Assembly: GCA_024682555.1 (NCBI GenBank)
Contig: JAIKZD010000003.1
Coordinates: forward strand, 1 to 64,000
Origin: Lachnospiraceae bacterium
GTDB lineage: Bacteria > Bacillota > Clostridia > Lachnospirales > Lachnospiraceae
Reading direction: 5' to 3'
DNA: 64,000 nucleotides
Part shown: one piece after another, positions 12,783 to 30,002 of the stretch
How the letters are laid out: each line of letters starts with the position of its first letter
How positions within the stretch are numbered: position 1 is the stretch's first letter
Notes under the pieces: generated by a model
What the model saw: the letters and a program-made list of their open reading frames with translations, nothing else
Databases searched by the model: none
Told to the model about the DNA's origin: nothing
Made by a program: the position numbers and the translations under genes

Positions 12783-14348
12783 ATGGAAATCTGGATAAGT
12801 AATCTTACGGATAATTTCACAGCGGAATATTTCATAAAACAGTTCCTGGTGATCCTTGCCATATTTCTGACGGGGATTATCATAAATTTTGTGTCCGGGT
12901 TTATGCGGGATACCATGATCTCCGTTTTGTGCGCTTTCCCCATGGGGCTTTCTCTGTATATCCTCTGCGGATATATGATCCTTGCCGCAGGGCTTTATAT
13001 TTCGGTAAAAAAGATCCTTTTTATCGAGGCCGCATTCCTTTGCTTTCTGCTGCTTATCCGGTATCTTGCCGTAAAAGGAGAAACCGGTGCAAAAACAGGA
13101 TTTTTTCCTTCATTACAGGCAAAGAAGATCCTTCCCGTCGTGCTGATACTTGCTGCCATGGCAGCGGTTTCTGTATCAGGGATCATATCCGTCAGCCTTT
13201 CAAACGATTCCATGTATTATTTCAATCTGTACCCCAAGGCCCTGGTAAATTACGGGGTATTAAGGAGAGAGTTTAATGTGATGCTTACGGATGTGGGGCT
13301 TGGAGCGGCCGTAATAGGGACTCTTCCCCATATGTTCGGATATAATGAAGGATTCGGAGTACTGACCTTCTTTAACTTAAATTTCATCTGCATATTTGCC
13401 CGGGCGGCTTATAACTGCGCCCTTAAGACCGGCAGGGGAAAAGGCTTCGGGGTTAAGGCTTCCCTGACCGTTACTCTCTTTCTTCTGTGTGCCATGCCGT
13501 TTATCATTATTTCCAAATGGGTAATGGCAAATGTATATTTTATGGAATATATGTTTATCTGCTTTTATCTGTTTTCGGAATTCTCAGCGGGGGAAACCGG
13601 AGAAACTATCCTTTCGTTTGCGGATTCCCTTAAAAAGGGCAGGATCACGGATGTCATACTGATATCCGTAATGGTGACCTCCATGTCATTTCTGAGGATG
13701 GAAGGGTCGATGATGTCCATCCTTTTCATACTTATAATCTCCATGATGGTATCCCTGCCGGATACGGAGCTTGCGGTCATACTTCTGTTACCCCAGATCC
13801 TTTTAAAGCTTTTGTATGATATAAGGATCTTTGTACTTATGGATATAAATGCACCATATACCTTCTTAACAAGGGAAAAAGCGGTTATAGAACTTGCCGC
13901 TCTCGTGCTGGTATTTGTTTACATCCTGTTTCTGAGGGGAAGATGGGGTTTTCTGAACAGACATATGGGCGGACTGATACTGTTTGGTCTTGTATGCGTC
14001 AATCTTGTCCTTTTCCTGCTTGACAGGACCCTTTACATAAATAACATGACTACCTTTATCCGCAATCTTTCAAACAGGTCAGGCTGGGGTGCTTTTCCGG
14101 TAACGGTCCTTTCCGTCGTGCTGGTAACTTCGGTCTGCAGGCTGACGGATAAAAAGCCTTTTAAGTTGAATGGAGCGGATCTGTTCGTTCTGGGATATAT
14201 TCTGCTCACCTTTGCGGTCTGCTTTGCCAGAGGGAATGAGCTTCAGGAAAACATCGGGGATTCGGGCAACAGGGTTTTGCTGCAGATAGTTCCCATGACT
14301 GTGTTTGCCCTGTATATACATGTCCTTGATCTGATGACGGAAGGCTGA
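12783..14348 (+). CDS. Large polytopic membrane protein, GT-C-like, unknown
   Basis: This 521-residue protein has about 12-13 predicted membrane helices and no long soluble tail. An early loop after helix four contains SLSNDSMYYFNLYPKALVNYG, an acidic-residue-containing first large external loop as in many GT-C transferases and polymerases. No named family was recognised. Placement after a flippase and among similar genes suggests a polyprenyl-phosphate-sugar-dependent glycosyltransferase or polymerase. Its last 143 bp overlap the 3' end of the convergent minus-strand gene, so no terminator lies between the two genes. Confidence 0.6.
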   Translation: MEIWISNLTDNFTAEYFIKQFLVILAIFLTGIIINFVSGFMRDTMISVLCAFPMGLSLYILCGYMILAAGLYISVKKILFIEAAFLCFLLLIRYLAVKGETGAKTGFFPSLQAKKILPVVLILAAMAAVSVSGIISVSLSNDSMYYFNLYPKALVNYGVLRREFNVMLTDVGLGAAVIGTLPHMFGYNEGFGVLTFFNLNFICIFARAAYNCALKTGRGKGFGVKASLTVTLFLLCAMPFIIISKWVMANVYFMEYMFICFYLFSEFSAGETGETILSFADSLKKGRITDVILISVMVTSMSFLRMEGSMMSILFILIISMMVSLPDTELAVILLLPQILLKLLYDIRIFVLMDINAPYTFLTREKAVIELAALVLVFVYILFLRGRWGFLNRHMGGLILFGLVCVNLVLFLLDRTLYINNMTTFIRNLSNRSGWGAFPVTVLSVVLVTSVCRLTDKKPFKLNGADLFVLGYILLTFAVCFARGNELQENIGDSGNRVLLQIVPMTVFALYIHVLDLMTEG

Positions 14349-16146
14349 CGGAAGGGCGCCTGTATACTTTTCCGCATTCCACTTCCGTTTCCTCGTACCC
14401 GTTTTCAAGCATATACTCCATAAAGGGTCCCGAGAGTTCGTTTTCATTGGGATAGGGATCGGCTTCGACATCTCCGCAGGTATCATAGGCCCCGTATTCA
14501 TCATCAAGGATAAGAACCACATCCGGGATCCTTTCCGGATTCATTTCATAGTATTCCATGAGTCTTTCGCTTCCGATCATGTTGCGCCAGGTGGTCGGTG
14601 CAGCCACCCTGAGGTCGGAGCGAAGATATCCGAAGGGTAAGAGTTTTGATATGAGAAGATTTCTCTGCCCGCCTTTTGCACTGTCTGACATACAGTATTC
14701 ATCTATGACCCTGATGATGCTTTCATAGGCTTCAAGATGTTCCTTTGTGGTAAGCAGCGATCTTGCCGGCCCGTCCGGTATCCTTTCGGTAAGCTCTTTA
14801 ACAGGAGCATCCCTGTAGATATAGAACATCCTGTGAAAGATCGAAACCGAAGGTGTGATAAGGATCACGGCCAGGGCAGCGATCATACAGATCCTGTTCA
14901 GGATAAGGTTATTTTTGTTGCCCGAAAGATCTTTGATAAAATCCCGGATAAATATGAAGGCCGAAACCGAAGCGATAAAGTGTCCCATTGAAAGTACATA
15001 TAAATATCCGTTTGAGGAATAGCTGTATACAAGAGAGAACAGCATTCCTCCCGCAAAAAGAGTAAAAAATGCGGAAAGATCGGGCTTGTCCGTGATAAAG
15101 AACAGGGGCAGGGCGAAGAGGCATACAGCCGTAAAAATGTATCCCGTATGGAAGACCGACACCGTCAGATCATAAATGAACAGGATAAGAGCGGCAAAAA
15201 AAATCCCGTACTTAAGGAAATACAGTCTGCCGTTTTTTATTTTCCTTCCGAAAAGGAGGGAGGTTAATATCAAAAGATAACCTGCATAGGCGGAAAGACC
15301 GTAGACCTCGTTGATGCTTATGAAGAACTTCTTAAGGGGATATATAAAACTTGTCCCGTGCTCGTCATCACTCAGTACATAAGGTATATTTGCGATAAAG
15401 TCAGGCAGGTTCACATTTCGGAACATGAAAATGAAGAAAATAAGTGCGGGAAGGGCTATTCCGAAAAGGGTGAATAAGAGTATCTCTTTTACCGTCTTTT
15501 TATCCGTCTTAAGGGAAAAGATCCGGTCAAGGGGGCCGGAAAAGAGGCATGAAAGGATCAGAAGAACAACCGTAAGAATATATCCGGGGGCCATGGTGGG
15601 AAGTGCAAGGACACTTACGGCATAATACACTCCTGCAGCAATGAGTCCGGACTTTTTGTCTTTAAGCTTTATATATGCGTATATGAGTAACATTGCCATC
15701 ATATAACACTGGGTGGACAGGGTGTAATAAGACAGGGTGGCAATGTTTAAATGGCTGTAAAAAAGCATGCATACCGATGCCGGTAAGGCAATATGAAAGG
15801 AGGAGATCTTTTTTAACAGATGAAACATCAAAGCGGAATTTGCTAAGGAGAAGATCACGAAAAGTATCCGGAAAAAAAGGACTATCCCGTCGCTGCTTCC
15901 CGTTATTCCCATATAAAGGGAGAAAAAGGGCAGCAGTATCACCGAGGACAGTTGGGTGGGAAACCAGTCATTTTTGAAAATGGAATCTCCCCGGTAAAAT
16001 CTGGCTGTGGTTGCAAGATAAAAGCTTTCATCCGACCAGCAGAAACTTAAGAAGCATCGTATGATAAGAATGATACCGGACAGAATAAATATCAGGACCG
16101 GAAGGTATTTTATGATATACCGTTGTTTCTCTTTAAACCGTGTCAT
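14206..16146 (-). CDS. Large polytopic membrane protein, GT-C-like, unknown (only minus-strand gene)
   Basis: This protein is about 646 residues from ATG at 16146, which has AGAGGA eight bases upstream. A longer form from 16191 lacks a ribosome site. It has about 12 membrane helices, then a soluble C-terminal domain (about residues 460-600) with acidic motifs such as VVLILDDEYGAYD. After the first helix comes CWSDESFYLATTARFYRGD, an early-loop acidic pair followed by a D as in GT-C glycosyltransferases. The final 50 or so residues overlap the convergent gene and have a serine-, proline- and cysteine-rich composition unlike the rest. The original stop was therefore probably near 14350, and the present tail looks like read-through into neighbouring sequence. 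Function is unknown. Confidence 0.62.
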   Translation of the reverse strand: MTRFKEKQRYIIKYLPVLIFILSGIILIIRCFLSFCWSDESFYLATTARFYRGDSIFKNDWFPTQLSSVILLPFFSLYMGITGSSDGIVLFFRILFVIFSLANSALMFHLLKKISSFHIALPASVCMLFYSHLNIATLSYYTLSTQCYMMAMLLIYAYIKLKDKKSGLIAAGVYYAVSVLALPTMAPGYILTVVLLILSCLFSGPLDRIFSLKTDKKTVKEILLFTLFGIALPALIFFIFMFRNVNLPDFIANIPYVLSDDEHGTSFIYPLKKFFISINEVYGLSAYAGYLLILTSLLFGRKIKNGRLYFLKYGIFFAALILFIYDLTVSVFHTGYIFTAVCLFALPLFFITDKPDLSAFFTLFAGGMLFSLVYSYSSNGYLYVLSMGHFIASVSAFIFIRDFIKDLSGNKNNLILNRICMIAALAVILITPSVSIFHRMFYIYRDAPVKELTERIPDGPARSLLTTKEHLEAYESIIRVIDEYCMSDSAKGGQRNLLISKLLPFGYLRSDLRVAAPTTWRNMIGSERLMEYYEMNPERIPDVVLILDDEYGAYDTCGDVEADPYPNENELSGPFMEYMLENGYEETEVECGKVYRRPSVSLPSSDQGHVYTGQTQSWELSAAKPCCPNPRCFPEAHSLWQSRPQR

Positions 16147-16184
16147 AGGGCGTATCCTCTGGGATTTCGATAATCCGGGCGTTT

Positions 16185-16213
16185 TTACCATTTGCGTCCG
16201 TTTATGGTATAAT
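16185..16213 (+). promoter_or_regulatory. Sigma-A-type promoter for the deacetylase/YfhO operon
   Basis: A perfect -10 box TATAAT lies at 16208-16213, with TTACCA at 16185-16190 (four of six matches to the -35 consensus) and a 17-base spacer. It sits in the 111-base divergent gap between the minus-strand gene and the GTG at 16258. It would give a leader of about 40 bases. Confidence 0.6.
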
Positions 16214-16257: not shown

Positions 16258-17013
16258 GTGTCAATGACAGTAAATGCCGACGATCTGGGGCTTGATGAGA
16301 GCACAAGCCGGGCAATACTTGAAGCTTTTAAGAAAAATTACATAAGTTCCTCCACTCTCATGGTCAATATGCCCTATGCAGAGGCGGCTGCGGATCTTGT
16401 AAGGACTGAAGGGCTTGCGGACAGGATCGGACTGCATCTTAATATCACTGCGGGGGAGCCGTTAAGCGAAGGGATCAGGAACAACCCCCTGATATGCGGA
16501 AATGACGGCGTTTTCAATGCCGCCTTTTATCATACTACAAAATACAGGCTTTATATGGATGATCTTACCATCAGGCAGATAAAGGATGAATTCAGGGCCC
16601 AGATAGAAAGGTTTCTCTCCTTTGGATTTAAGGAGCTCCATATAGATTCCCATCATCATGTGCATACCAATTATCCCGTATACAGGGCTCTTAAGCAGTT
16701 AAGTGCGGAGTATGATCTTAAGTATGTAAGACTCAGCAGAAATATGTACCACGGGGGCAGTATCCCAAACAGGGTGTATAAGTTTTTTTATAACAAAGGA
16801 ATAGAAAAGCTTTCGGAGGAACATACGGATCTTTTCGGCTCCTTTACAGATCTTTTTGCGTACATAAACGGAGATGAGAATGCTTTAAGGGCGCTCATTG
16901 ATAAAAAAAACATAGAGGTAATGGTACATCCCATGTATAAAGACGGTATCCTCTATGATACGGACACGAAGATGGAAGATGAATGGAGGCTTTTATGTCA
17001 CGCTCAAGGATAA
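16258..17013 (+). CDS. YdjC/ChbG family carbohydrate deacetylase
   Basis: This 251-residue protein of the YdjC-like family (PF04794) has the metal-site and catalytic aspartates at NADDLG (residues 6-11). The IGLHLNITAGEPLS segment near 60-74, HIDSHHHVHTN with the metal histidines near 126-136, and VMVHPMYKDG at the C-terminus are also present. Characterised members remove acetyl groups from N-acetylated sugars (chitooligosaccharides for ChbG, lipid intermediates for HpnK). Here it leads an operon of membrane glycosyltransferase-like genes, so deacetylation of a lipid-linked HexNAc is plausible but inferred. The start is GTG 16258 or ATG 16264, and both have AGGG or GGGAG nearby. Confidence 0.85.
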   Translation: MSMTVNADDLGLDESTSRAILEAFKKNYISSSTLMVNMPYAEAAADLVRTEGLADRIGLHLNITAGEPLSEGIRNNPLICGNDGVFNAAFYHTTKYRLYMDDLTIRQIKDEFRAQIERFLSFGFKELHIDSHHHVHTNYPVYRALKQLSAEYDLKYVRLSRNMYHGGSIPNRVYKFFYNKGIEKLSEEHTDLFGSFTDLFAYINGDENALRALIDKKNIEVMVHPMYKDGILYDTDTKMEDEWRLLCHAQG

Positions 17014-19799
17014 ATGAGATAACAAAATATATAATCCCGGTTCTTATAACCGATGTGCTTTTCTGCCTCATACTGTTTTCGAAGCATATTTATCCCTTCG
17101 GGGAGGAAACCATAGATTACTATGATATGGCACAGCAGATCGCCGCATTTTATTATCATGTCTATGATGCACTGCATAACACAAAGGCATGGTTTTACGA
17201 TTTCTATACCGCCCTTGGCACCAATATGGCCATGAGCACCTCGGGCTGCAGCCATCTCTCGGTTTTCAATCTCTTCTTTCTCTTCATAAGGAGAGGATCG
17301 TTGCTTAAGAGCCTTTCCGTATTCCACCTTATAAAGATATCCGTGATGACTCTTACCATGTATATCTACGTACACAGATCCTTTAAGCTTTCCTATGCTT
17401 TCGAGGTAATGGTCTCCGTGGGATATGCCTTCTGCGGGTTTGTTCTGATGCTGTATATCACAAATCAGTGGATGGATATTGCCGCCCTTTTCCCGCTTCT
17501 TATGTATTTCTACGACAGACTTCTGAGAGAGGGAAAGGTCACGGGGTATACCGTGATGCTCACCCTCATAACCATAAACAGTTATTATCTGAGCTTTATG
17601 ATACTTTTATTCCTGGTGCTTCTGACCGGACTCAACATCGCATCGGAAAGGATCTATGTAAAGGCTGAGGACAGGAGAAGATTTTACCTGATGGAGCTTG
17701 CAGCCGCAACCATACTGTCTCTCATGCTCTCCTCCTTTATAATGATACCACAGCTCACCCAGACCCTGTCCTCGGCAAGGTTCGGAAACGAAAGCGGAGG
17801 AAACGGGCTTTTTGCCATGTATAAGAACATTCTTGTCCAGGTATCGCCCGCGTATACCACAAGGTGGTGGTCCTTATACAATACCGCCCTTCTCTTTGCG
17901 GTCATCTTTGCAGGGATCATAAAGCACAGGAAAAACAGGAGGATACTGTTCTATACCTTTTCCCTCATTCTTATGATGTGCCTTGAGCTGTTTGTGGAGA
18001 GCATCAACCTGATATGGCATTTCGGATCCTATGTCCAGTATCCCATAAGAAACGGATTTATCATTTATTTTTCCCTGGCCTATTTAGCCTGCAGATTTTT
18101 TGAAAAAGATGAGAAGAACGACTTCGAAGTTCTCTCACTGTTAGGATTTCCGGCATCCCTGCTCATGTTTTTTGTTTTTGCCTTCATATACAGAAAGCAC
18201 CCGGGTATGCCTGTAAGGAGCGTGTTCCATATAACCGCGGCTATGATGGCGGTAACCTTCTGTGTATATCTTGTTCTTCTCATATGGAAGAACGGAAAGC
18301 ATTATTCCTTTATGATAATGATCTTTGCCGCCGAGATACTCTGTTATGGTTTTCTTATGTACGGAAAACCCGCATTTATCACGGGATACAGTGAAGAACC
18401 CGAACAGGACGGGGAATACATAAGGATATGCGAACAGCTTGCAGAGCAGTTTGACCTTGAGGCGGAGAGCATATACAGGATCAAAAATCCCGATGAAAGC
18501 CTTAATGCGAATTATCCCCTGGTGTTAAGAAGATCAGCACTTTCAAACTGGACGCATCTTGTGCCGAAGGAGATGCAGACGGATGCGGCCAAATGGGGAT
18601 ACAGCATACAGTTCACAAGACTTCTTGATTCGGGCGGAACTGCCTTTACCGATGCGCTTATCGGTGTAAGGGATGTAATAAGCCTTAAGGAACTGGATGA
18701 GGAGCTCTATGAAAAGAAGGACAGTGCCGAAGTGATAACGGATCATAAAACCGGTGAAAAGAGGACTTATTATCTGTACAGATGTAAATATACCCTGCCT
18801 TTTGCAATACCCGTATATGCAAATGCCATATTCGACTCCGAGATCGAAACAAGGGACATGGTCAATTACCAGAACCAGATCTACAGAGCCATGACGGGTG
18901 CGGATACCGGCGCCGAGCAGCAGATCACGGAATGGGTCATAAGGAATGACCAGCTGGTGGTTGACGATGATGCCCAGATAAAGACTGAGGTGATCACCGA
19001 CGAAAAAACACAGTCTGCCGTTAAAAGGACTGTCCTGAGCCGTAATGTAAAGGGAAAAAAGGCAATGTATCTAAACTGCAGCTGCTATGATACCGAAGAT
19101 AAGAACATCATGATAACGGTGGCGGACAGGGATAAGACCGGGATAGTGGAGATACCGGATATAAAAGATGAGGATAACGTGTATTATCCTTCGCATTTTA
19201 ACAATAACGCGGTATATCTGGGAACCTTTGAAAACGAGACCGTAACGGTCATCGTCGACTGCAGGCTTTTGGAAGATGTTCCGGCGCAGCCCGTATACGT
19301 GTCGGAGCTGGATCTTAACAAACTGCGGATCCTCTGTGATTCCTACAGGGATCTTAATGAAGAGATACGGGTGGGAAAGAAGACCATAGAATTCTCCACC
19401 GATATAGAGGAAGAGACGGGAAGTGCGGTAATGCTGCTTCCGGTGGCTTATGACAAGGGCTGGGAGCTTAAGGTAAACGGAAAAAAGACCGACATAGCAT
19501 ATTCCTACAACGGCCTGTTCACCGCTATTCCCCTGTATTCGGGGATAAATACCATCAGGATGAAGTACACTCCCGACGGGATGGGACTGGGGATAGCAGT
19601 ATCCGTTGCCGGGATCATTCTCTTTATGCTGTTTGTCCTGTTAAGGCATACAAAGAACAGCATGATAAGGGAAGAGGTGGATATCTTAAGCAGGGATGTT
19701 GAAGGCTGGCTTACTCCTGTCTGGCTCTTCGGATTTTCGATGCTTATCCTGGTGATGTATCTGATCCCCATCGGTTATGCATTGACACATCTGAGATAG
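16995..19799 (+). CDS. YfhO-type GT-C membrane glycosyltransferase
   Basis: This protein is about 934 residues, with about 12 N-terminal membrane helices (to about residue 450), a long extracytoplasmic domain (about 460-885) and one more helix near the C-terminus (VSVAGIILFMLFVLL). This is the architecture of the YfhO family (PF09586), whose members add sugars to teichoic or lipoteichoic acids from undecaprenyl-phosphate donors. The first external loop contains PFGEETIDYYDMAQQ, with acidic residues in the position expected for a GT-C base. Start 16995 has GGAGG five bases upstream and is better than ATG 16983. It overlaps the deacetylase gene by 19 bp. A GtrB-like donor synthase at 9636 could supply its substrate. 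Confidence 0.78.
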   Translation: MSRSRINEITKYIIPVLITDVLFCLILFSKHIYPFGEETIDYYDMAQQIAAFYYHVYDALHNTKAWFYDFYTALGTNMAMSTSGCSHLSVFNLFFLFIRRGSLLKSLSVFHLIKISVMTLTMYIYVHRSFKLSYAFEVMVSVGYAFCGFVLMLYITNQWMDIAALFPLLMYFYDRLLREGKVTGYTVMLTLITINSYYLSFMILLFLVLLTGLNIASERIYVKAEDRRRFYLMELAAATILSLMLSSFIMIPQLTQTLSSARFGNESGGNGLFAMYKNILVQVSPAYTTRWWSLYNTALLFAVIFAGIIKHRKNRRILFYTFSLILMMCLELFVESINLIWHFGSYVQYPIRNGFIIYFSLAYLACRFFEKDEKNDFEVLSLLGFPASLLMFFVFAFIYRKHPGMPVRSVFHITAAMMAVTFCVYLVLLIWKNGKHYSFMIMIFAAEILCYGFLMYGKPAFITGYSEEPEQDGEYIRICEQLAEQFDLEAESIYRIKNPDESLNANYPLVLRRSALSNWTHLVPKEMQTDAAKWGYSIQFTRLLDSGGTAFTDALIGVRDVISLKELDEELYEKKDSAEVITDHKTGEKRTYYLYRCKYTLPFAIPVYANAIFDSEIETRDMVNYQNQIYRAMTGADTGAEQQITEWVIRNDQLVVDDDAQIKTEVITDEKTQSAVKRTVLSRNVKGKKAMYLNCSCYDTEDKNIMITVADRDKTGIVEIPDIKDEDNVYYPSHFNNNAVYLGTFENETVTVIVDCRLLEDVPAQPVYVSELDLNKLRILCDSYRDLNEEIRVGKKTIEFSTDIEEETGSAVMLLPVAYDKGWELKVNGKKTDIAYSYNGLFTAIPLYSGINTIRMKYTPDGMGLGIAVSVAGIILFMLFVLLRHTKNSMIREEVDILSRDVEGWLTPVWLFGFSMLILVMYLIPIGYALTHLR

Positions 19800-19813: not shown

Positions 19814-21562
19814 ATGGAAAGAGGCAGAATAAAGAGTGATCTGATATACTCGCTTATCCTTAATGCGGCGGCATTGATCGTCTCCGTTTTATTATACTGC
19901 CCTTTTTTTGAGGAGAATGATGATGCCTTTATTGCCATGATCTCCGAGGGCGCATTCGGAAGCAGGGATCACCATCTGATATATGCGAATGTGGTCTACG
20001 GTAAGATACTGACCGCATTAAGTTCTCTGTTTTCAGGTGTCAGATGGCATTCGGTGCTTCAGTATCTGCTGATATTTGCCGCCATGACCCTGATGACCCT
20101 CTTCATATGCAGATATTCGGGCAGCAGACTGTTTGCCCTGCTTTTTACAGCTGCTTCTTTTTATGAGCTTTATGTGTCGCTTCAGTATTCAAAGACCGCG
20201 GCCTTTGCGGCTTCCGTGGGTTTTGTCCTGCTATTTCGTCAGGTACATGAGAAGGAAAAAGATACCGCGGGTATCATATCCGGATCCGTATTACTTACGG
20301 CTGCGGCCCTGCTTAGGGACAGTTCCTTTTATCTTGCGGGGATATTTGCCTTTGTGATCTGTATGACCGATCTGGCAGGCACCGTCTTTTCCTCCGGAAA
20401 AAGGGATGATAAAAAAGCCGGTCCGGGTGCCTTTTCGGACAGATTTCTGTCCTATGTAAGGGTGTTTGCTCCGGTCCTTACCATTATCCTTGTTCTTGTG
20501 TCCGTAAACAGGTGGTCCTATGAAAAGGATGAGGGCTGGAAGACTTTTACGGAATACAATGATAACAGGATGCGGCTTCTTGATTACAGATACGATCTTT
20601 TAGACATCACAAAGCATAAGGACAGTCTCTCAAAGGCCGGGATATCCGAAAACGATGCTCTTTTATATCTTACCTGGCAGTTTGGGGATGACGGTATATT
20701 AAGCAGTGAAAAGATGGAAGGGATCCTTGAAACGGGGACTATGAGGCCTGTGGATCTGTCAATGTTTAAGGGGTTTGCGGCAAATGTTTATAATGACTTT
20801 TTCAGACTTAACCCTCTCTGCCTGTTCCTGTTATTCGTTATCGTGGTCCTTATTTCCGGGGATTTCGTAAAAAGAAGGGGCCTGGTCCCGGCTATTTTCG
20901 TGCTTTGCCTCGAACTGTTTGTATTCTGCGGGATTTTGTTTTATTTTCACTACAGCGGAAGATGGACCCACAGGGTCGCCTACGGGGCAGCGCTCTCTCT
21001 GTGCGTGATGCTTACAGGGCTGTATGTTTCGGGATGTTTCGGGGAGAAGACCGTTAAGATCAAAGATCCGGACGGACCGGATAACACAAAACTTCTGATC
21101 CCTGTCCTTGTATTTCTGGCATTTGCGGATATATCCCTTCTTCTGGGAAACCGGTTCGATCATAATGCCTATAAGAGGGAAGAGCCCGATTACAAGGCAT
21201 TTTACGGATATGTCGCCGACAATGCGGACACTCTGTTTGTGGCGGACACCTTTACTTTCCAGAATGCATATGTTTATGATATTTTTACCGCATATCCGGA
21301 AGGTTTCCTTAAGAATTATGTTACCACCGGAAGCTGGTTTGTAAATTCACCCATCACCAAAGAAATAACGGGAAGGTTCGGGTATAAGAATCCCTTCGAT
21401 GCCCTCTGCGGTGATGATGAAAATGTTATCCTTGCGGATAATCTGTATCCGGAAGAAAAGCTTGAATTCATAAATGAACATTACGGTGAAGATCATTACC
21501 TGTCAGAGCAGGGTGAGATAAACGGTATCAGACTTTACGGGATACATAAAAAACCGGAGTGA
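19814..21562 (+). CDS. Polytopic membrane protein with C-terminal soluble domain, GT-C-like, unknown
   Basis: This 582-residue protein has about ten membrane helices between residues 10 and 440 and a soluble C-terminal domain of about 125 residues (from KREEPDYKAFYGY). An early external loop FFEENDDAFIAMISEGAFG carries paired acidic residues after helix one, a GT-C hallmark. No named family was recognised. The gene begins 14 bases after the YfhO gene with a purine-rich GATAAGAGAAAG upstream. It ends overlapping the next open frame's GTG by 4 bp. Confidence 0.6.
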   Translation: MERGRIKSDLIYSLILNAAALIVSVLLYCPFFEENDDAFIAMISEGAFGSRDHHLIYANVVYGKILTALSSLFSGVRWHSVLQYLLIFAAMTLMTLFICRYSGSRLFALLFTAASFYELYVSLQYSKTAAFAASVGFVLLFRQVHEKEKDTAGIISGSVLLTAAALLRDSSFYLAGIFAFVICMTDLAGTVFSSGKRDDKKAGPGAFSDRFLSYVRVFAPVLTIILVLVSVNRWSYEKDEGWKTFTEYNDNRMRLLDYRYDLLDITKHKDSLSKAGISENDALLYLTWQFGDDGILSSEKMEGILETGTMRPVDLSMFKGFAANVYNDFFRLNPLCLFLLFVIVVLISGDFVKRRGLVPAIFVLCLELFVFCGILFYFHYSGRWTHRVAYGAALSLCVMLTGLYVSGCFGEKTVKIKDPDGPDNTKLLIPVLVFLAFADISLLLGNRFDHNAYKREEPDYKAFYGYVADNADTLFVADTFTFQNAYVYDIFTAYPEGFLKNYVTTGSWFVNSPITKEITGRFGYKNPFDALCGDDENVILADNLYPEEKLEFINEHYGEDHYLSEQGEINGIRLYGIHKKPE

Positions 21563-21576
21563 TCAAGAGGAAGAAT

Positions 21577-22641
21577 ATGAATGCATTAAATATCCTGCTT
21601 ATAATCATATGGGGACTGGTCATACCTTTTTTTGCCGGGATGATTCCGTCTTATCTGCTTTCCGGCGGTAAAGTAAAGAATGTAAGCATATCCGAAAACT
21701 TCATGTTCGGATTTCTTATGTACCTTGCCGTATTTTATGTTCCTGCTTTTCCCATGATAATGTTAAAGCTTCCCTTTGTTTATCTGAAGATCACGTGGAT
21801 CCTTTTTATCCTTCTCCTGTTTTTCTTCTCACTGTGGCTGACCTTTAAGGACGGACCGGAAAAGTTTTTTTCATCCTTTGTAAGGACCGGGGGTGAGAAT
21901 GTCCTGTATATATTTGCGGCCGCCGTCCTGCTGATATTTTCACAGACCCTTCTTCCGGGACTCCGTATGCATATGGACACGGACGATTCGAGATTTATAG
22001 CGGAGGCGCTTGAGACCTTCGAAAAGGGAACCATGCTTTCGTATAATCCCATAACCGGTGAATATCTGGATGCGCCTGTGGGGGAGATGCTAAAGGACTT
22101 AAGTTCCCCCTATCCCATATTTGTGGCGCTGTTAAGCTGTCTTTTCAGGCTTCACCCGGCAATAACGGCTCATACGGTCCTTCCGTTTCTTCTGATCCCA
22201 TTAAGCTACGTTACCGTATACAACGTGTTTAAGCTTTTCCTTAAAAAGGATGCCGTAAGCCTGGGTCTTGCCCTTATTTTCTCGGCCCTGATCAATTTCT
22301 TTTATTTCGGGAGCAAATCCTCGGCAGGATATGTGCTTCTTGAGATAATCTGGCAGGGAAGGTCCATCGGCGCAATGATCATGATACCGGCAGCCTGGTA
22401 TGCCCTGTTAAGGCTTTTACAGGACGAAGAGTTTTATTTCGGACATTATTTTCTTTTGTTTATTTCAGGCCTTTCCGCGATACTATTAAGCGGAACCACT
22501 GCGATGCAGTTTATGTTTCTTGCAGCGGCCTTTCTTCCCGTCCTTCTGATCAAGAGGAAGTCGCCGGGTCCCGCGGCAGGGGTGATCATTGCCTGTATAC
22601 CCTGTGTCATCGGGCTGATAAAGTACTATATCTTCAAGTGA
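21577..22641 (+). CDS. N-terminal half of an interrupted polytopic membrane protein
   Basis: This 354-residue, almost wholly membrane-embedded protein has about nine helices. The best start is ATG 21577, with AGAGGA five bases upstream. An in-frame GTG at 21559 overlaps the previous stop. The loop after the third or fourth helix contains GLRMHMDTDDSRFIAEALE, with an acidic cluster typical of the first large loop of GT-C-like proteins of Lachnospiraceae (DUF6077-like; name tentative). The reading frame ends at TGA 22639, and the next gene continues in exactly the same frame with no other stop between. The two are therefore most simply halves of one ancestral gene. Without its second half this protein would lack the soluble domain its relatives carry. 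Confidence 0.6.
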   Translation: MNALNILLIIIWGLVIPFFAGMIPSYLLSGGKVKNVSISENFMFGFLMYLAVFYVPAFPMIMLKLPFVYLKITWILFILLLFFFSLWLTFKDGPEKFFSSFVRTGGENVLYIFAAAVLLIFSQTLLPGLRMHMDTDDSRFIAEALETFEKGTMLSYNPITGEYLDAPVGEMLKDLSSPYPIFVALLSCLFRLHPAITAHTVLPFLLIPLSYVTVYNVFKLFLKKDAVSLGLALIFSALINFFYFGSKSSAGYVLLEIIWQGRSIGAMIMIPAAWYALLRLLQDEEFYFGHYFLLFISGLSAILLSGTTAMQFMFLAAAFLPVLLIKRKSPGPAAGVIIACIPCVIGLIKYYIFK

Positions 22642-22665
22642 TCTGATAAGGACAGAGAAAAGACA

Positions 22666-24666
22666 ATGAAGGATATCATCATAAACATCATTCATCTGAA
22701 TAATGAACTGACTTACGGAAATATGTACATGGGGCTTTATTTTCTCGCCCTTATATTTCTTGCCTTTGTCCTGAAGGACAAAAGATACAGGAATGCCATA
22801 CTGTGGCCTTCCCTGTGCCTTCTTTTCTTTGTGTATGTAATACTTCCCGTATTCAACTTTCTTGATTACAAATACATAAAAAAATACATCCTGGGGTGGG
22901 ACATGAATTACAGGATGGTGTGGCTTTTGTTGGTTGTTCCGGTTATAGCGCTTTTTCTGTCGCTGCTCATTAAAAGCATTGAAAAGAGAAACGAAAGGAT
23001 CGCGGCGGCACTTCTTCTGATCCCGGTCATCTTTTTCTGCGGACAGTTCAAGATCAACGGAACGGAGTTTGCAAAGGCGGAGAATCTGTATAAGCTCCCC
23101 CGGGCTCTTCTTGATATATCGGATACGGTCCTTTCGGAAAAGGATGAGCCAAAGCTTTTAGTTCCCTATGAGACAGCTCATGTATTCAGACAGTATTCGT
23201 CCGATATAAAGCTCTTATACGGCGAGGATGCGACTTATGGAAGGGTAAAGCCCGCAGCGGAGGAACTTGTGGCGGTATGTAACGAGATGACAAAGGAGGT
23301 TCCGGATCTGTATTTCATAAATGAAGTGGCAGAAAAGAACGGGGTTGATTATATCATCTTTGATGCGGCCTACCACCGTTTCGGAGGGCAGTCCGTGAAC
23401 GTATATGATTACAGTCCGGATCCGGATTATATAGGAGACCGGAGCGTTGCGGTAAGCGAGAACCGGATCCCCTATATCGACATGCGGGATGAGGAAAAAG
23501 AGAGCATACACTGGGATCTTTCGGAGTTCGGACTTTCTTATGAGGGAACTTACGGACAGTATCTTCTGTACAGGTATGACAGGGATTTGTTAACGGGTGC
23601 CGGTTCTGATACGGGAATAAGCACCGGGACTGTCGGTGTCAGGGAAGATACGGATTTTGGAAACGTCATAGTTGAGACCGGGGTGGATGAGTTCAATGAC
23701 CTGGGATTCAAACATGGCGACAGTCTGGATGTAAGGTTCTCAAACGGCTATACCCTTGAAGACATCCCTTATTACTCGGGGTACTATAATGCTGCGGGAG
23801 AACCGCTTCTGGTTGAATTCATGGGAAAGGAGATCGTGGCTGCCATCAATTACGGATCGTTATGGTCCGAAGCCGGTCTGTCGGAGGGTGATACGGCGGA
23901 GATCTCTCTTAATGAGGCCGGAAAGTACCTCGATATACAGAATGCCCTTGATATAGCTTATACGGACGACAGAAACGACTATGACAGCGATGTGGTTTTT
24001 GCGAATTTCAGAAGCATAAATGCCGGAAAACTTAAGGAGAATATACTCTGCCGCAGCGCCTCGCCCTGTGACAACAAACATAACAGGGCGCGTTACTGCG
24101 ATGATCTTGCAGAAAAAGCGGGCATAGGACTGATAGTGGATCTTGCGGATTCCCATGAGGAGATAAAGGGTTTTATGAGCGCGGATGACTTCGATTCTCC
24201 CTGTTTTGCTTCCCTATATGAAAGAGACGCAGTGATACCCGTGAATCTGCAGGTAAACTATAAAACGGATGATTTCAGGAAAAAGATCACGGAGGCCTTC
24301 CGGATAATGAGCAGAACCGACGGGCCTTATCTTATACACTGTGTTGAGGGAAAGGACAGGACCGGATTTGTATGTGCGCTCCTTGAATGTCTTGCGGGAG
24401 CTTCCTATGACGAGATCGTTTCGGATTACATGGAATCCTATATAAACTATTACGGGCTGGATCCCTCATCCGAAAGGGAGAGGTATGACACCATTTTGGA
24501 TAATAACCTCGTTCCCATGCTTAGATTCATAGCAGGTGCGGAGGAGAATGCCGATATTACAGCCATCGATCTTGTATCCGGTGCCGAAGCATATCTGCTT
24601 GACGGCGGGATGACCAGGGAAGAGATCGAAGCACTTAAAGAAAAACTCTGCGGACCTGAAGGCTGA
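22666..24666 (+). CDS. Membrane-protein C-terminal half fused to a protein-tyrosine-phosphatase-like domain
   Basis: This protein has 666 residues. Residues 1-140 contain four or so helices. Residues about 145-320 form a soluble domain of the kind found at the C-terminus of the GT-C-like proteins here. Residues about 328-666 are a separate unit: a beta-rich segment (TDFGNVIVETGVDEF onwards) leading to a cysteine-based phosphatase fold with HCVEGKDRTG. C559-X5-R565 is the tyrosine/dual-specificity phosphatase P-loop in the GKDRTG form seen in PF13350-type enzymes, and an acidic general-acid loop around 500-510 is plausible. It is in frame with the upstream gene across one TGA. The ATG has only a weak AAGGAC 12 bases upstream. 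If the first helices run as in the intact family, the phosphatase domain would be outside the cytoplasm, which is unusual. Confidence 0.7.
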   Translation: MKDIIINIIHLNNELTYGNMYMGLYFLALIFLAFVLKDKRYRNAILWPSLCLLFFVYVILPVFNFLDYKYIKKYILGWDMNYRMVWLLLVVPVIALFLSLLIKSIEKRNERIAAALLLIPVIFFCGQFKINGTEFAKAENLYKLPRALLDISDTVLSEKDEPKLLVPYETAHVFRQYSSDIKLLYGEDATYGRVKPAAEELVAVCNEMTKEVPDLYFINEVAEKNGVDYIIFDAAYHRFGGQSVNVYDYSPDPDYIGDRSVAVSENRIPYIDMRDEEKESIHWDLSEFGLSYEGTYGQYLLYRYDRDLLTGAGSDTGISTGTVGVREDTDFGNVIVETGVDEFNDLGFKHGDSLDVRFSNGYTLEDIPYYSGYYNAAGEPLLVEFMGKEIVAAINYGSLWSEAGLSEGDTAEISLNEAGKYLDIQNALDIAYTDDRNDYDSDVVFANFRSINAGKLKENILCRSASPCDNKHNRARYCDDLAEKAGIGLIVDLADSHEEIKGFMSADDFDSPCFASLYERDAVIPVNLQVNYKTDDFRKKITEAFRIMSRTDGPYLIHCVEGKDRTGFVCALLECLAGASYDEIVSDYMESYINYYGLDPSSERERYDTILDNNLVPMLRFIAGAEENADITAIDLVSGAEAYLLDGGMTREEIEALKEKLCGPEG

Positions 24667-26834: not shown

Positions 26835-26855
26835 GGATTGATAAGGGGAAAGATA

Positions 26856-29800
26856 ATGAATAAGGATAAGAAAATGCACAACGGCAAGGGTGCCGTTGAG
26901 TGTAAACCCATCGAATGGGATCAGTATCGCATCAGTAAGGATACGGAAGGATCCGCAAATAAAAAGGATAGTTCAAAGTCTGTAGTTGATGCTTCAAAAC
27001 CGGAAGGAACAAAGGGGCAGGGAATAAAAGTCTCGAAGCAGGAATCGTCAATAGACGGATTTACCGCCGAGTTTGAGACAAATATAATCAATTCCACTCT
27101 GATGCAGGATGAAAACCTGTTCATCGAGGCAGCGAAAAAGGACAAGAGTCTGGCAGAGAGTTCCGGATCCTCAAATGTTTCGCCGGAAGCGGTAAAAGCC
27201 CTTAAGGAAACTGCAAAAAAACCGGATGAAAGCAAGTTCACCGATACATATCTGAAATCCCCCGAGGAAAAGATATCAGAAAAGCTTTCAAATATCGGAA
27301 AACCGGATCCTGAAAGCGAACCCCTTACCTCAGATGTCATGAAGGCAAGGAAGGCGGTCAATGACAAGATCATCATTCGTTCGGAGGAAGTAAAGAAGAA
27401 CGGGGATCCCGGAAAAAAAGCAAAGTTCAGGAAGAATTCCGGGGATGATACCGACGGGTCGCAGGAGACCATCGAAAAAACCGATGAATCCCAAAAAGAC
27501 AGGGAGAATCTGAAGAAAGACGGATACGGCAGGGAAAACCGGGATCATCCTGCAGGTTATTCATCGGATTTCAGGAAGAATGCCGGTGAATGGAAGCGGG
27601 ACAACGGATCCGCGGGAGAACCGGATACGGTCATCGACGGATTTTTCAGGCGCTTTTCGGTTCTGCAGTGGGCCATGATAGGAATGGCGGTGCTCATCTT
27701 TGTCACAGCCGTTATGACGAGTGCCGTTTATGCGGACTACAGAGGCGAGCAGAATAAAGCCAGGGCTCTTGAAAGCCTTAAGAGATATGATGCGCAGGAG
27801 GAACAGATCCTTGAATCCGTAGAAGAGATAGAACAGCCGGAAGCGGCACAGGAGCCCGAGGAAGTGGAGTTAAAGGCAGTTAATCTCGTTCTTACCTCGG
27901 TTGAAAAAGATCTGAAGATAAAACTCGTTGATGACGAGGATATTCTGATAAAAGAAGTTCCCTGGGGCGTTACCGTATCGGACGATAAGGGAAACAGCTC
28001 GGAAGAACATGATGATGATGAGGACGGGGTTATTCACCTGACGGATATGTCGGCAGGGGATTATTCCGTGGAACTCATTCCCAGCGATGCGCTTTCCGGA
28101 TTCATCCTTCCTCCCGCGAAGCAGGTATGCTCCGTAAAGGCTACGGTGGAATATAAGGTTATCGCAAATATTAAAGAGGAGATAAGGTCCGAGAAGGAAG
28201 TCAATGCAGCTGCCGAGGATGCAAACGGCAACCAGGCAGCCGATGTGGAAACAGGAACAGCCCCCACGGATACCGTGGAGTGGTGTGAGTCCACAAAGAC
28301 GGCTAACGGTGAGGAATTTATAGAGGCTGTACCGGATCTTACAAAGACCGCCTCCATAAAAAAAGAGAATCAGCTTCTTGCGGCTCTTGATATCATCAAA
28401 GCCTCGGCGGACAGAAATATAGGAAAAAGAACGATATTCGGACTTCCGGTTCTGCTTGTGGATGCCGGTCAGGATGCGCCTGTCGGAGAACCCGGAAATG
28501 AAGATGACAATACATTGGACGATACTTCTGAGGAACCGACACCGGAACCGACGCCGGAGCCCACACCGGAACCGACGCCGGAGCCCACACCGGAACCGAC
28601 GCCGGAGCCGACGCCTGATCCCACACCGGAACCGACGCCTGATCCCGTGCAGATCACTCTGTCGGATATAAGCGGTCCCAAAGAGGTTTTCGCAGGATCG
28701 GAAATACAGTTAAGCGTTACGGTCACTCCGGCGGGAACCCCCATAACATGGTCAACCGAGAAACCTGCCTATGCGGGCGTGGACCAAAGCGGCAAAGTAT
28801 CGGGAATAAGACCCGGAACGGTAAAGATCACGGCAAAGGCCGGGGATGTTACAAAGACATATGAGATAAACGTTGTATTAAAGCCTGAGGATAACAGCTT
28901 AAGGATAGAAGGAAACACAACGGTGGCAGCAGGCTCCACCGTAACCCTTAAAGCTGTGGCCGTTCCCGCAGATACGGTGGTAACCTGGGCATCGGCCGAT
29001 GCGTCAATCGCGGCCGTCGATCCCTCAACGGGCGTTGTAAGCGGTATAAAAGCAGGGACGGTTGCCATTACCGCAGCCGGCAACAACGGCAAGACCGCTT
29101 CCGTTAACATCACGGTAACAGCCGGACAGTATGCGGATACCGCACAGTTATATGATGCAAACAAGAATCCGCTGTATGTAAGCGACAACGGGACCTACAG
29201 GCTGGCCAAATATGCGGATTACATAAGCGGAAATTTCAGCAAGTATTACAGAAAGGCCGAGAGCTTCCTGTATACGGGCTGGCAGACCATAGATAATGTG
29301 ACGTATTATTATAAGAGCGACCATACCTATGTTACCGGACCGCAGATCATACAGGGTGTTTCCTATAACTTCTCGGATAACGGAGCTTTAGCCCAGGGAT
29401 CGGGCACCCTCGGTATCGATGTATCAAAGTATCAGCCCAGTATCAACTGGTCATCGGTAAAGGCATCCGGAATTGACTTTGTTATAATCCGGTGCGGATA
29501 CAGAGGTGCAAGTACGGGAGTCCTCATTCAGGATCCCTGCTATATATCCCATATAAAGGGCGCCAAGTCCGTAGGACTTAAGGTCGGGGTCTATTTCTTC
29601 TCGACGGCTCTCAATGAGACCGAAGCCGTGGAAGAAGCTTCCATGTGCGTTGCCCTTGCTTCGGGATACGGAGTGAACTATCCCATATTCATAGATGTGG
29701 AATCAAGCTCCAGACCCGGATACAACGGGCTGTCTGCCGCACAGAGGACCCAGAACATAAAGGCCTTCTGTCAGACCATAAGATCCGCGGGCTATTCTGC

Positions 29801-30002
29801 GGGAGTTTACGCGAATAAGACCTGGCTCTCAAGTTATATGAATGCTTCGGAACTTTCGTCATATAAGATATGGCTTGCACAGTACAGCGCAAGCGGGCCT
29901 ACCTACGGCGGCAAATATGATCTCTGGCAGTTTACCTCAAGGGGATCCGTAGGCGGCATCAGCGGAAATGTCGATATGAACAAGAGCTTTTTGGGATATT
30001 AG
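26856..30002 (+). CDS. Membrane-anchored GH25 muramidase with Big2 domains and cytoplasmic domain
   Basis: This protein has about 1048 residues. The first 265 residues are charged, Lys/Ser/Glu-rich, have no signal peptide and should be cytoplasmic. One helix follows at about 268-292 (WAMIGMAVLIFVTAVMTSAVY). Outside come a Glu-rich stalk and a prealbumin-like region to about 470. A Pro-Thr-Pro-Glu/Asp repeat lies at 561-597, followed by two Big2 immunoglobulin-like domains (about 598-765). A short aromatic repeat resembling cell-wall-binding repeats (FLYTGWQTIDNVTYYYK) precedes the C-terminal GH25 lysozyme domain (about 848-1048). GTLGIDVSKYQ and FIDVES carry the catalytic acidic residues of the family. 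The likely role is local peptidoglycan cleavage where surface polymer is attached or exported. ATG 26856 has AAGGGGA six bases upstream and is preferred over TTG 26838. Confidence 0.88.
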   Translation: MNKDKKMHNGKGAVECKPIEWDQYRISKDTEGSANKKDSSKSVVDASKPEGTKGQGIKVSKQESSIDGFTAEFETNIINSTLMQDENLFIEAAKKDKSLAESSGSSNVSPEAVKALKETAKKPDESKFTDTYLKSPEEKISEKLSNIGKPDPESEPLTSDVMKARKAVNDKIIIRSEEVKKNGDPGKKAKFRKNSGDDTDGSQETIEKTDESQKDRENLKKDGYGRENRDHPAGYSSDFRKNAGEWKRDNGSAGEPDTVIDGFFRRFSVLQWAMIGMAVLIFVTAVMTSAVYADYRGEQNKARALESLKRYDAQEEQILESVEEIEQPEAAQEPEEVELKAVNLVLTSVEKDLKIKLVDDEDILIKEVPWGVTVSDDKGNSSEEHDDDEDGVIHLTDMSAGDYSVELIPSDALSGFILPPAKQVCSVKATVEYKVIANIKEEIRSEKEVNAAAEDANGNQAADVETGTAPTDTVEWCESTKTANGEEFIEAVPDLTKTASIKKENQLLAALDIIKASADRNIGKRTIFGLPVLLVDAGQDAPVGEPGNEDDNTLDDTSEEPTPEPTPEPTPEPTPEPTPEPTPEPTPDPTPEPTPDPVQITLSDISGPKEVFAGSEIQLSVTVTPAGTPITWSTEKPAYAGVDQSGKVSGIRPGTVKITAKAGDVTKTYEINVVLKPEDNSLRIEGNTTVAAGSTVTLKAVAVPADTVVTWASADASIAAVDPSTGVVSGIKAGTVAITAAGNNGKTASVNITVTAGQYADTAQLYDANKNPLYVSDNGTYRLAKYADYISGNFSKYYRKAESFLYTGWQTIDNVTYYYKSDHTYVTGPQIIQGVSYNFSDNGALAQGSGTLGIDVSKYQPSINWSSVKASGIDFVIIRCGYRGASTGVLIQDPCYISHIKGAKSVGLKVGVYFFSTALNETEAVEEASMCVALASGYGVNYPIFIDVESSSRPGYNGLSAAQRTQNIKAFCQTIRSAGYSAGVYANKTWLSSYMNASELSSYKIWLAQYSASGPTYGGKYDLWQFTSRGSVGGISGNVDMNKSFLGY
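28536..28646 (+). repeat. In-gene Pro-Thr-Pro-Glu/Asp tandem repeat
   Basis: Nine 12-base units encode Pro-Thr-Pro-Glu or Pro-Thr-Pro-Asp and form a 24-base higher-order unit by alternating codons. The tract encodes a stiff wall-spanning linker between the stalk and the Big2 domains, and such tracts often vary in copy number between strains. Confidence 0.9.

What the first reader, a model, noticed from the sequence alone, without database searches (positions are those of the whole stretch)
21577..24666. One in-frame TGA splits a GT-C-like membrane gene; its second half carries a tyrosine-phosphatase domain
The frame ending at TGA 22639-22641 and the frame beginning at ATG 22666 are in the same phase. 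The eight codons between the TGA and that ATG are all sense codons, and the downstream ATG has a poor ribosome site. The first part has the N-terminal helices and acidic loop of a GT-C-like protein. The second part has the remaining helices and the soluble domain normally found at the end of such proteins. A single stop thus separates what look like two halves of one gene of about 1030 codons. Either it is a recent nonsense mutation, or the two halves are translated separately or by readthrough and assemble.
Basis: partly seen in the sequence, partly recalled or inferred. Interest (0 to 1): 0.75.

Follow-up and report, generated by a model that had tools for sequence, protein, structure and literature searches.

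The report
Two-gene membrane glycosyltransferase with grafted phosphatase
What looked like one gene broken by a stop codon is an old, normal pair of genes whose two proteins probably fold together as one membrane sugar-transferring enzyme; the unusual part is that the second protein here carries an extra phosphatase domain at its end.

Summary
The in-frame TGA at 22639-22641 is real but is not a mutation. It is the ordinary end of a DUF6077 protein (Pfam profile 2-353 of 354). Among 100 loci, 71 distinct full-length DUF6077 sequences (the window's included) were found; 63 have the second-half gene B directly downstream. In 61 pairs the halves are separate genes, in all three relative phases and with all three stop codons; in 2 they form one frame. 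Same phase plus eight open codons is about a 1-in-5 chance. A joint AlphaFold model (pLDDT 88.8, pTM 0.91) has GT-C glycosyltransferases as its 12 best PDB hits, 5 of them at E <= 0.001, with modest TM-scores. So the pair most likely makes a two-polypeptide GT-C enzyme. The phosphatase is not that family's normal ending. It is a PtpB/ALP-type enzyme (HCVEGKDRTG), usually a separate predicted lipoprotein; here it lacks a signal peptide and is joined to B's predicted outer C-terminus. The fusion was seen only in this genome: 0 of the best 80 of 484 relatives, and no other genome among 37 of the genus or 299 of the family (candidates partly scored). One sister species has the phosphatase fused to another membrane protein.

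The parts
16983..19799 (+). YfhO-family membrane protein, 938 aa, upstream neighbour
   Evidence: PF09586 E 4.6e-100
19814..21562 (+). U: 582-aa protein with no Pfam hit, membrane-protein-like by eye; its relatives lie directly upstream of A in the 11 same-genus genomes with a strong A match
   Evidence: tblastn hits upstream of A in 12 loci from 11 genomes
21577..22641 (+). A: DUF6077 protein, 354 aa; N-terminal half of a GT-C-like enzyme; start may be GTG 21559
   Evidence: PF19554 E 1.7e-66, profile 2-353 of 354
21982..21987 (+). Asp136-Asp137 of A, in a loop predicted to be extracytoplasmic
   Evidence: D136 in 39 of 40 rows, D137 in 29 of 40
22639..22641 (+). TGA, the normal end of A
   Evidence: break conserved in relatives
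22648..22652 (+). AAGGA, possible ribosome site of B
22666..24666 (+). B-P: second half of the enzyme fused to a phosphatase, 666 aa
22666..23037 (+). membrane part of B (about residues 1-124)
   Evidence: helices in the joint model; loop charges
23038..23583 (+). tail of B, predicted extracytoplasmic, ending where relatives' B proteins end
23584..23619 (+). linker at the fusion junction; the signal peptide and lipobox Cys of the stand-alone phosphatases are absent
   Evidence: pLDDT 44 for the first ten residues
23620..23919 (+). small beta domain, probably the part that resembles a domain of SAM-dependent halogenases / SAM hydroxide adenosyltransferases (limits approximate; the aligned range was not printed)
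   Evidence: strands in the model; Foldseek, 94-100 columns at 1.8-2.3 A to 7ccg, 5b6i_B, 2zbu_A
24016..24651 (+). PtpB/ALP-type phosphatase domain (Y_phosphatase3)
   Evidence: PF13350; PtpB and C. difficile PTP as top PDB hits
24337..24366 (+). P-loop HCVEGKDRTG
   Evidence: C, E, G, K, D, R and T of the motif invariant in 35 rows

Best explanation
A (DUF6077) and B are two adjacent genes that have long been separate. Their proteins are made independently and assemble into one GT-C-type glycosyltransferase. A supplies the first helices and an acidic extracytoplasmic loop; B supplies the remaining helices and a soluble extracytoplasmic tail. It probably moves a sugar from a polyprenyl-phosphate carrier to a surface glycan made by the surrounding cluster. 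In this lineage a secreted ALP-type phosphatase, usually a lipoprotein, lost its signal peptide and was joined to the outer C-terminus of B, so that the transferase now serves as its membrane anchor and places it at the outer face. Shown: separate genes, conserved break, natural single-frame versions, absence of the signal peptide. Predicted: the joint GT-C fold and the topology. Inferred: physical assembly, substrate, and any functional link between the two activities.
For: A ends where DUF6077 ends. In 392 order genomes 69 match (68 over the cut-off), in 27 of 173 genera; 86 of the 93 matches listed lie in frames of 330-440 aa. B directly follows A in 63 of 71 distinct full-length sequences, including 2 single-frame forms. 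Phases 25/23/13 of 61 pairs, window included (chi-square p 0.13), and mixed stop codons. Joint model pLDDT 88.8, pTM 0.91. The 12 best PDB hits are DPY19 (3 entries), an OST-translocon chain, ArnT, ALG12, Pmt4 (3 chains), AftB (2) and ALG3; 5 have E <= 0.001, the others E 0.0045-0.024; that the OST chain is the GT-C subunit is recalled. Conserved polar residues in both halves. Loop charges on the whole fit an outer B tail. The phosphatase is stand-alone in five of the six other same-genus genomes with a strong match, and 58 of the 80 kept relatives pass a crude lipobox pattern. Homology to stand-alone L101/L102 reaches into their post-lipobox spacer.
Against: TM-scores of the joint model to the GT-C structures are only 0.23-0.46 with rmsd 6-17 A. 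The model was made with A and B in one chain across the stop, which pushes them together; A and B alone were not modelled. Two of 71 A sequences (L055, L076) have no B-like match in the roughly 1.5 kb fetched downstream, and in six paralogues no B lies directly downstream. Topology was assigned by eye from the model's helices; one loop placed inside is slightly negative (residues 281-290) and one placed outside is positive (61-67). No activity has been tested. The B-phosphatase fusion rests on one assembly.
Confidence: 0.8

Rival explanations
1. A recent nonsense mutation split one gene, leaving a pseudogene or two working halves.
For: Equal phase and eight sense codons between the halves.
Against: 60 other distinct pairs show the two halves as separate genes; the start of B is conserved in relatives in other phases; A ends at the family's own end.
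Confidence: 0.02
2. The TGA is read through at some rate (or decoded as a residue), giving a long form as well.
For: Only that the frame is open downstream.
Against: Phase not conserved (25 of 61 equal), stop codon not conserved, TGA not favoured (21 of 61).
Confidence: 0.02
3. A and B are separate, independent membrane proteins that merely sit in one operon.
For: Two of 71 A sequences lack a B-like match in the stretch fetched; no assay of assembly exists.
Against: Natural A+B single frames in two genera; the joint model matches GT-C structures over 717-730 alignment columns for CeDPY19.
Confidence: 0.13
4. The B-phosphatase fusion is an assembly artefact joining two genes from different places.
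For: One assembly of 159 contigs, contamination 5.84%; no second genome of the species; fusion not seen elsewhere in the searches.
Against: The join is in frame, at B's natural end and just after the signal-peptide region of the phosphatase; a comparable fusion to another membrane protein exists in G004, though it too rests on one assembly.
Confidence: 0.1

Closest known systems
DUF6077 (Pfam PF19554)
   Same: A is a full-length member.
   Different: The Pfam entry is named 'family of unknown function' and covers only the first half; here it is read as one half of a GT-C enzyme with B as partner.
GT-C glycosyltransferases (DPY19, ArnT, AftB, ALG12; YfhO and PMT_2 enzymes of Gram-positive wall polymers, PMC8035078, passages seen)
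   Same: Predicted fold, acidic residues in an outer loop, soluble tail, glycan-cluster setting.
   Different: Encoded as two polypeptides in 61 of the 63 A-B cases seen; the known enzymes named are single chains (recalled).
Atypical lipid phosphatases / PtpB type (PMC3091653; Pho16B, PMC6409689; passages seen)
   Same: P-loop HCXXGKDR[TA]G, Y_phosphatase3 domain, PtpB as top sequence and fold hit.
   Different: Has an extra beta domain resembling part of SAM-dependent halogenases and, in this genome, is joined to a GT-C half instead of carrying a signal peptide.

Membership tests
GT-C glycosyltransferase superfamily | polytopic, about 8-13 predicted helices in the wall-polymer enzymes | tested here: inconclusive
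   13-14 membrane-length helices over A+B counted by eye from the model's helix list, hydrophobicity not measured; range from a passage of PMC8035078
GT-C glycosyltransferase superfamily | conserved DxD or modified acidic motif in an extracellular loop | tested here: met
   D136 39 of 40, D137 29 of 40 rows; loop net negative, placed outside by eye; feature from a passage of PMC8035078
GT-C glycosyltransferase superfamily | GT-C fold | tested here: met
   12 best PDB hits are GT-C, 5 at E <= 0.001, but TM-score at most 0.46, on a model with A and B joined
GT-C glycosyltransferase superfamily | use of a polyprenyl-phosphate sugar donor | not testable with these tools
   needs an assay
DUF6077 (PF19554) | profile match over the cut-off, whole length | tested here: met
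   224.9 bits against 27; 2-353 of 354
Atypical lipid phosphatase (ALP) | P-loop HCXXGKDR[TA]G | tested here: met
   HCVEGKDRTG; signature from PMC3091653 passages
Atypical lipid phosphatase (ALP) | phosphoinositide or phosphotyrosine phosphatase activity | not testable with these tools
   needs an assay
Disrupted gene (nonsense pseudogene) | intact single-frame orthologues in close relatives | tested here: not met
   same-genus pairs are two genes; the two single-frame forms are in other genera

The most novel reading that the evidence does not exclude
A heterodimeric GT-C enzyme whose outer face has recruited an ALP-type phosphatase, giving a membrane complex that both adds a sugar and removes a phosphate on the same surface glycan or lipid intermediate. 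If both assemblies are right, recruitment of this phosphatase to polytopic membrane proteins happened at least twice in one genus.
Probability: 0.2. Interest if true: 0.6.

Novelty: new variant of a known kind. Interest (0 to 1): 0.4.

Why it matters
It gives a family without assigned function (DUF6077, over its cut-off only in the window's own bacterial family) a concrete, testable role as half of a two-part GT-C enzyme, and points to its unnamed partner. It warns against calling such adjacent in-phase genes broken. It also gives a case of a secreted phosphatase apparently exchanging its own anchor for a glycosyltransferase subunit, which may link dephosphorylation to surface-glycan decoration.

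Tried and rejected
Nonsense mutation and read-through were tested against relatives and rejected. TGA as an amino-acid codon was not pursued further, since the stop codon is not conserved. A joint alignment with the natural fusion L094 as query failed because B rows fell on the A region. One with the phosphatase included failed because B tails fell on the phosphatase. Both were dropped, and A+B without the phosphatase was used. The idea that the lipobox cysteine survives as a changed codon at the junction came from inspecting the alignments; it is not firm and is not claimed. Literature: 0 papers hold DUF6077. Two searches for GT-C enzymes encoded in two pieces showed none in the titles and abstract openings listed (20 of 25 and 10 of 71 papers); no paper was opened for this question. 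PHROGs gave nothing for B-P.

Full report
Observation. The sequence is as described: frame A ends at TGA 22639-22641, frame B begins at ATG 22666 in the same phase with eight sense codons between. By chance this happens about one time in five (1/3 for phase, 0.64 for eight open codons). A ribosome-site-like AAGGA lies 13 nt before the ATG.

What A and B are. A is a complete DUF6077 protein (profile 2-353 of 354). B has no Pfam family over its cut-off in its first 325 residues. A search of 392 genomes of the order found DUF6077 in 69 (68 over the cut-off), in 27 of 173 genera; 86 of the 93 matches listed are in frames of 330-440 aa, that is, the protein ends where A ends (only up to five first-look candidates per genome were scored). 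The one match outside the window's family is below the cut-off. In a draw of 398 genomes of the phylum 4 matched, all from the window's own family and the window's genome among them. The family is probably Lachnospiraceae, judging from the named nearest phosphatase relatives (inference).

The break is old. Among loci L001-L100, 71 distinct full-length DUF6077 sequences were found, the window's included; 63 have B directly downstream. Of these, 61 are separate genes and 2 are one frame (L094, 609 aa; L095, 611 aa). The 61 separate pairs, the window's included, are in equal phase 25 times, +1 23 times and +2 13 times; A's stop is TAG 23, TGA 21, TAA 17; the median gap is 12 nt. Of the eight without B downstream, six are extra copies that stand in front of a second A; where the stretch before them was held (L045, L100), a B-like piece lay upstream. 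Two (L055, L076) have no B-like match in the stretch fetched. So neither nonsense mutation nor read-through explains the window.

One enzyme in two pieces. An AlphaFold2 model of A plus B in one chain, with 55 rows, has pLDDT 88.8 and pTM 0.91; stretches below pLDDT 50 are only the join (355-361) and the extreme end (677-681). Its 12 best PDB matches are GT-C enzymes or complexes: CeDPY19 (three entries), an OST-translocon chain, ArnT, ALG12, Pmt4 (three chains), AftB (two), ALG3; five are at E <= 0.001 and the rest at 0.0045-0.024. TM-scores are 0.23-0.46, so this is a fold-class match, not a close one, and the single chain favours packing of the halves. Strongly conserved residues lie in both halves: Asp136 in A (39 of 40 rows), Arg446 (42 of 42), Asn503 (41 of 41) and Arg538 (40 of 41) in the B part, in model numbering. 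With helices assigned by eye, loop charges agree on the whole with the acidic loop of A and the tail of B being outside; exceptions are an inner loop that is slightly negative (281-290) and an outer one that is positive (61-67). The natural single-frame forms are independent support that the halves belong together.

Setting. The pair follows a YfhO-family gene and a 582-aa protein. Relatives of the 582-aa protein also lie directly upstream of A in the 11 same-genus genomes with a strong A match (12 loci). Elsewhere in the window are glycosyltransferases, a sugar transferase, a polysaccharide-export-type protein, a dTDP-4-dehydrorhamnose epimerase, ABC-2 and Wzt-type transport genes and a phosphoglucomutase: a surface-glycan cluster. 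A role in decorating that glycan from a polyprenyl-phosphate sugar, as in the multi-component systems reviewed in PMC8035078 (passages seen), is inference.

The phosphatase. Residues of about 320-663 of B-P are a phosphatase with the ALP P-loop HCVEGKDRTG (signature from passages of PMC3091653). The model of this part has pLDDT 94. Its best PDB hits are PtpB and a C. difficile PTP (TM-scores 0.29-0.48), followed by SAM-dependent halogenases and their kin over 94-110 columns; I take the latter to match the N-terminal beta domain, though the aligned range was not printed. Of 484 relatives in genome contigs the best 80 were kept (records of the window's own genome may be left out); none of the 80 has B in the same frame and none has more than two hydrophobic stretches before the phosphatase by a crude measure. 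58 of 80 pass a crude lipobox pattern in the first 60 residues (the pattern errs both ways). The nearest, L101 and L102 (75%), are stand-alone and predicted lipoproteins, and their homology to the window continues into the spacer after the lipobox. In the tree the window's domain groups with these two (100/100), apart from same-genus copies, several of which are poorly placed. In 37 genus genomes, 9 match and 7 strongly: one fused to B (the window), one in an 846-aa protein with a different membrane part (G004) and five stand-alone, of which L007 shows no clear signal peptide. The membrane part of the G004 protein is found in 33 of 61 genomes, all of this genus, in frames mostly of 490-627 aa (shorter at some contig ends); only in G004 is the frame long enough to carry the phosphatase. 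Among 299 family genomes no other B-phosphatase fusion appeared, with at most four candidates per genome scored. The simplest mechanism is an exchange of the lipid anchor for a membrane-protein anchor; a joint catalytic role is possible and untested. A related ALP with phytase activity is known (PMC6409689, passages), so inositol phosphates are one candidate substrate.

Verdict. The proposed break is ordinary and ancestral. What is worth keeping is the two-polypeptide GT-C reading of DUF6077 and the phosphatase fusion. The fusion rests on one assembly (159 contigs, completeness 95.69, contamination 5.84).

Noticed in passing
L100 (G000:C59:20000-29000), also L045: The genome's second DUF6077 cluster carries two units in the order B'(partial)-A'-A-B, with second halves at both ends; in L045 a piece of B' and A' lie in one frame.
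   Followed up: partly
L215:4481-7018 (-), G004: The same phosphatase type is fused to the C-terminus of a different membrane protein that is otherwise mostly 490-627 aa and was found only in this genus among 61 genomes.
   Followed up: yes
L111, L118, L144, L173; G560:C38, G430:C37: In other Firmicutes the phosphatase is joined to SLH domains, DUF3089, 5'-nucleotidase or choline-binding parts; frames of 754 and 781 aa (G560, G430) hold two copies.
   Followed up: partly
window 23620-23919: The phosphatase carries a preceding beta domain that probably accounts for its hits to SAM-dependent halogenases and SAM hydroxide adenosyltransferase-like structures.
   Followed up: partly
window 12783-14348 (+), 14206-16191 (-): Two long frames (521 and 661 aa) inside the glycan cluster have no Pfam hit at E 0.001 and overlap tail to tail by 143 bases.
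   Followed up: no
window 26838-30002 (+): 1054-aa frame with a run of PTPE repeats before what look by eye like Ig-like repeats and a lysozyme-like end; family not scanned.
   Followed up: no
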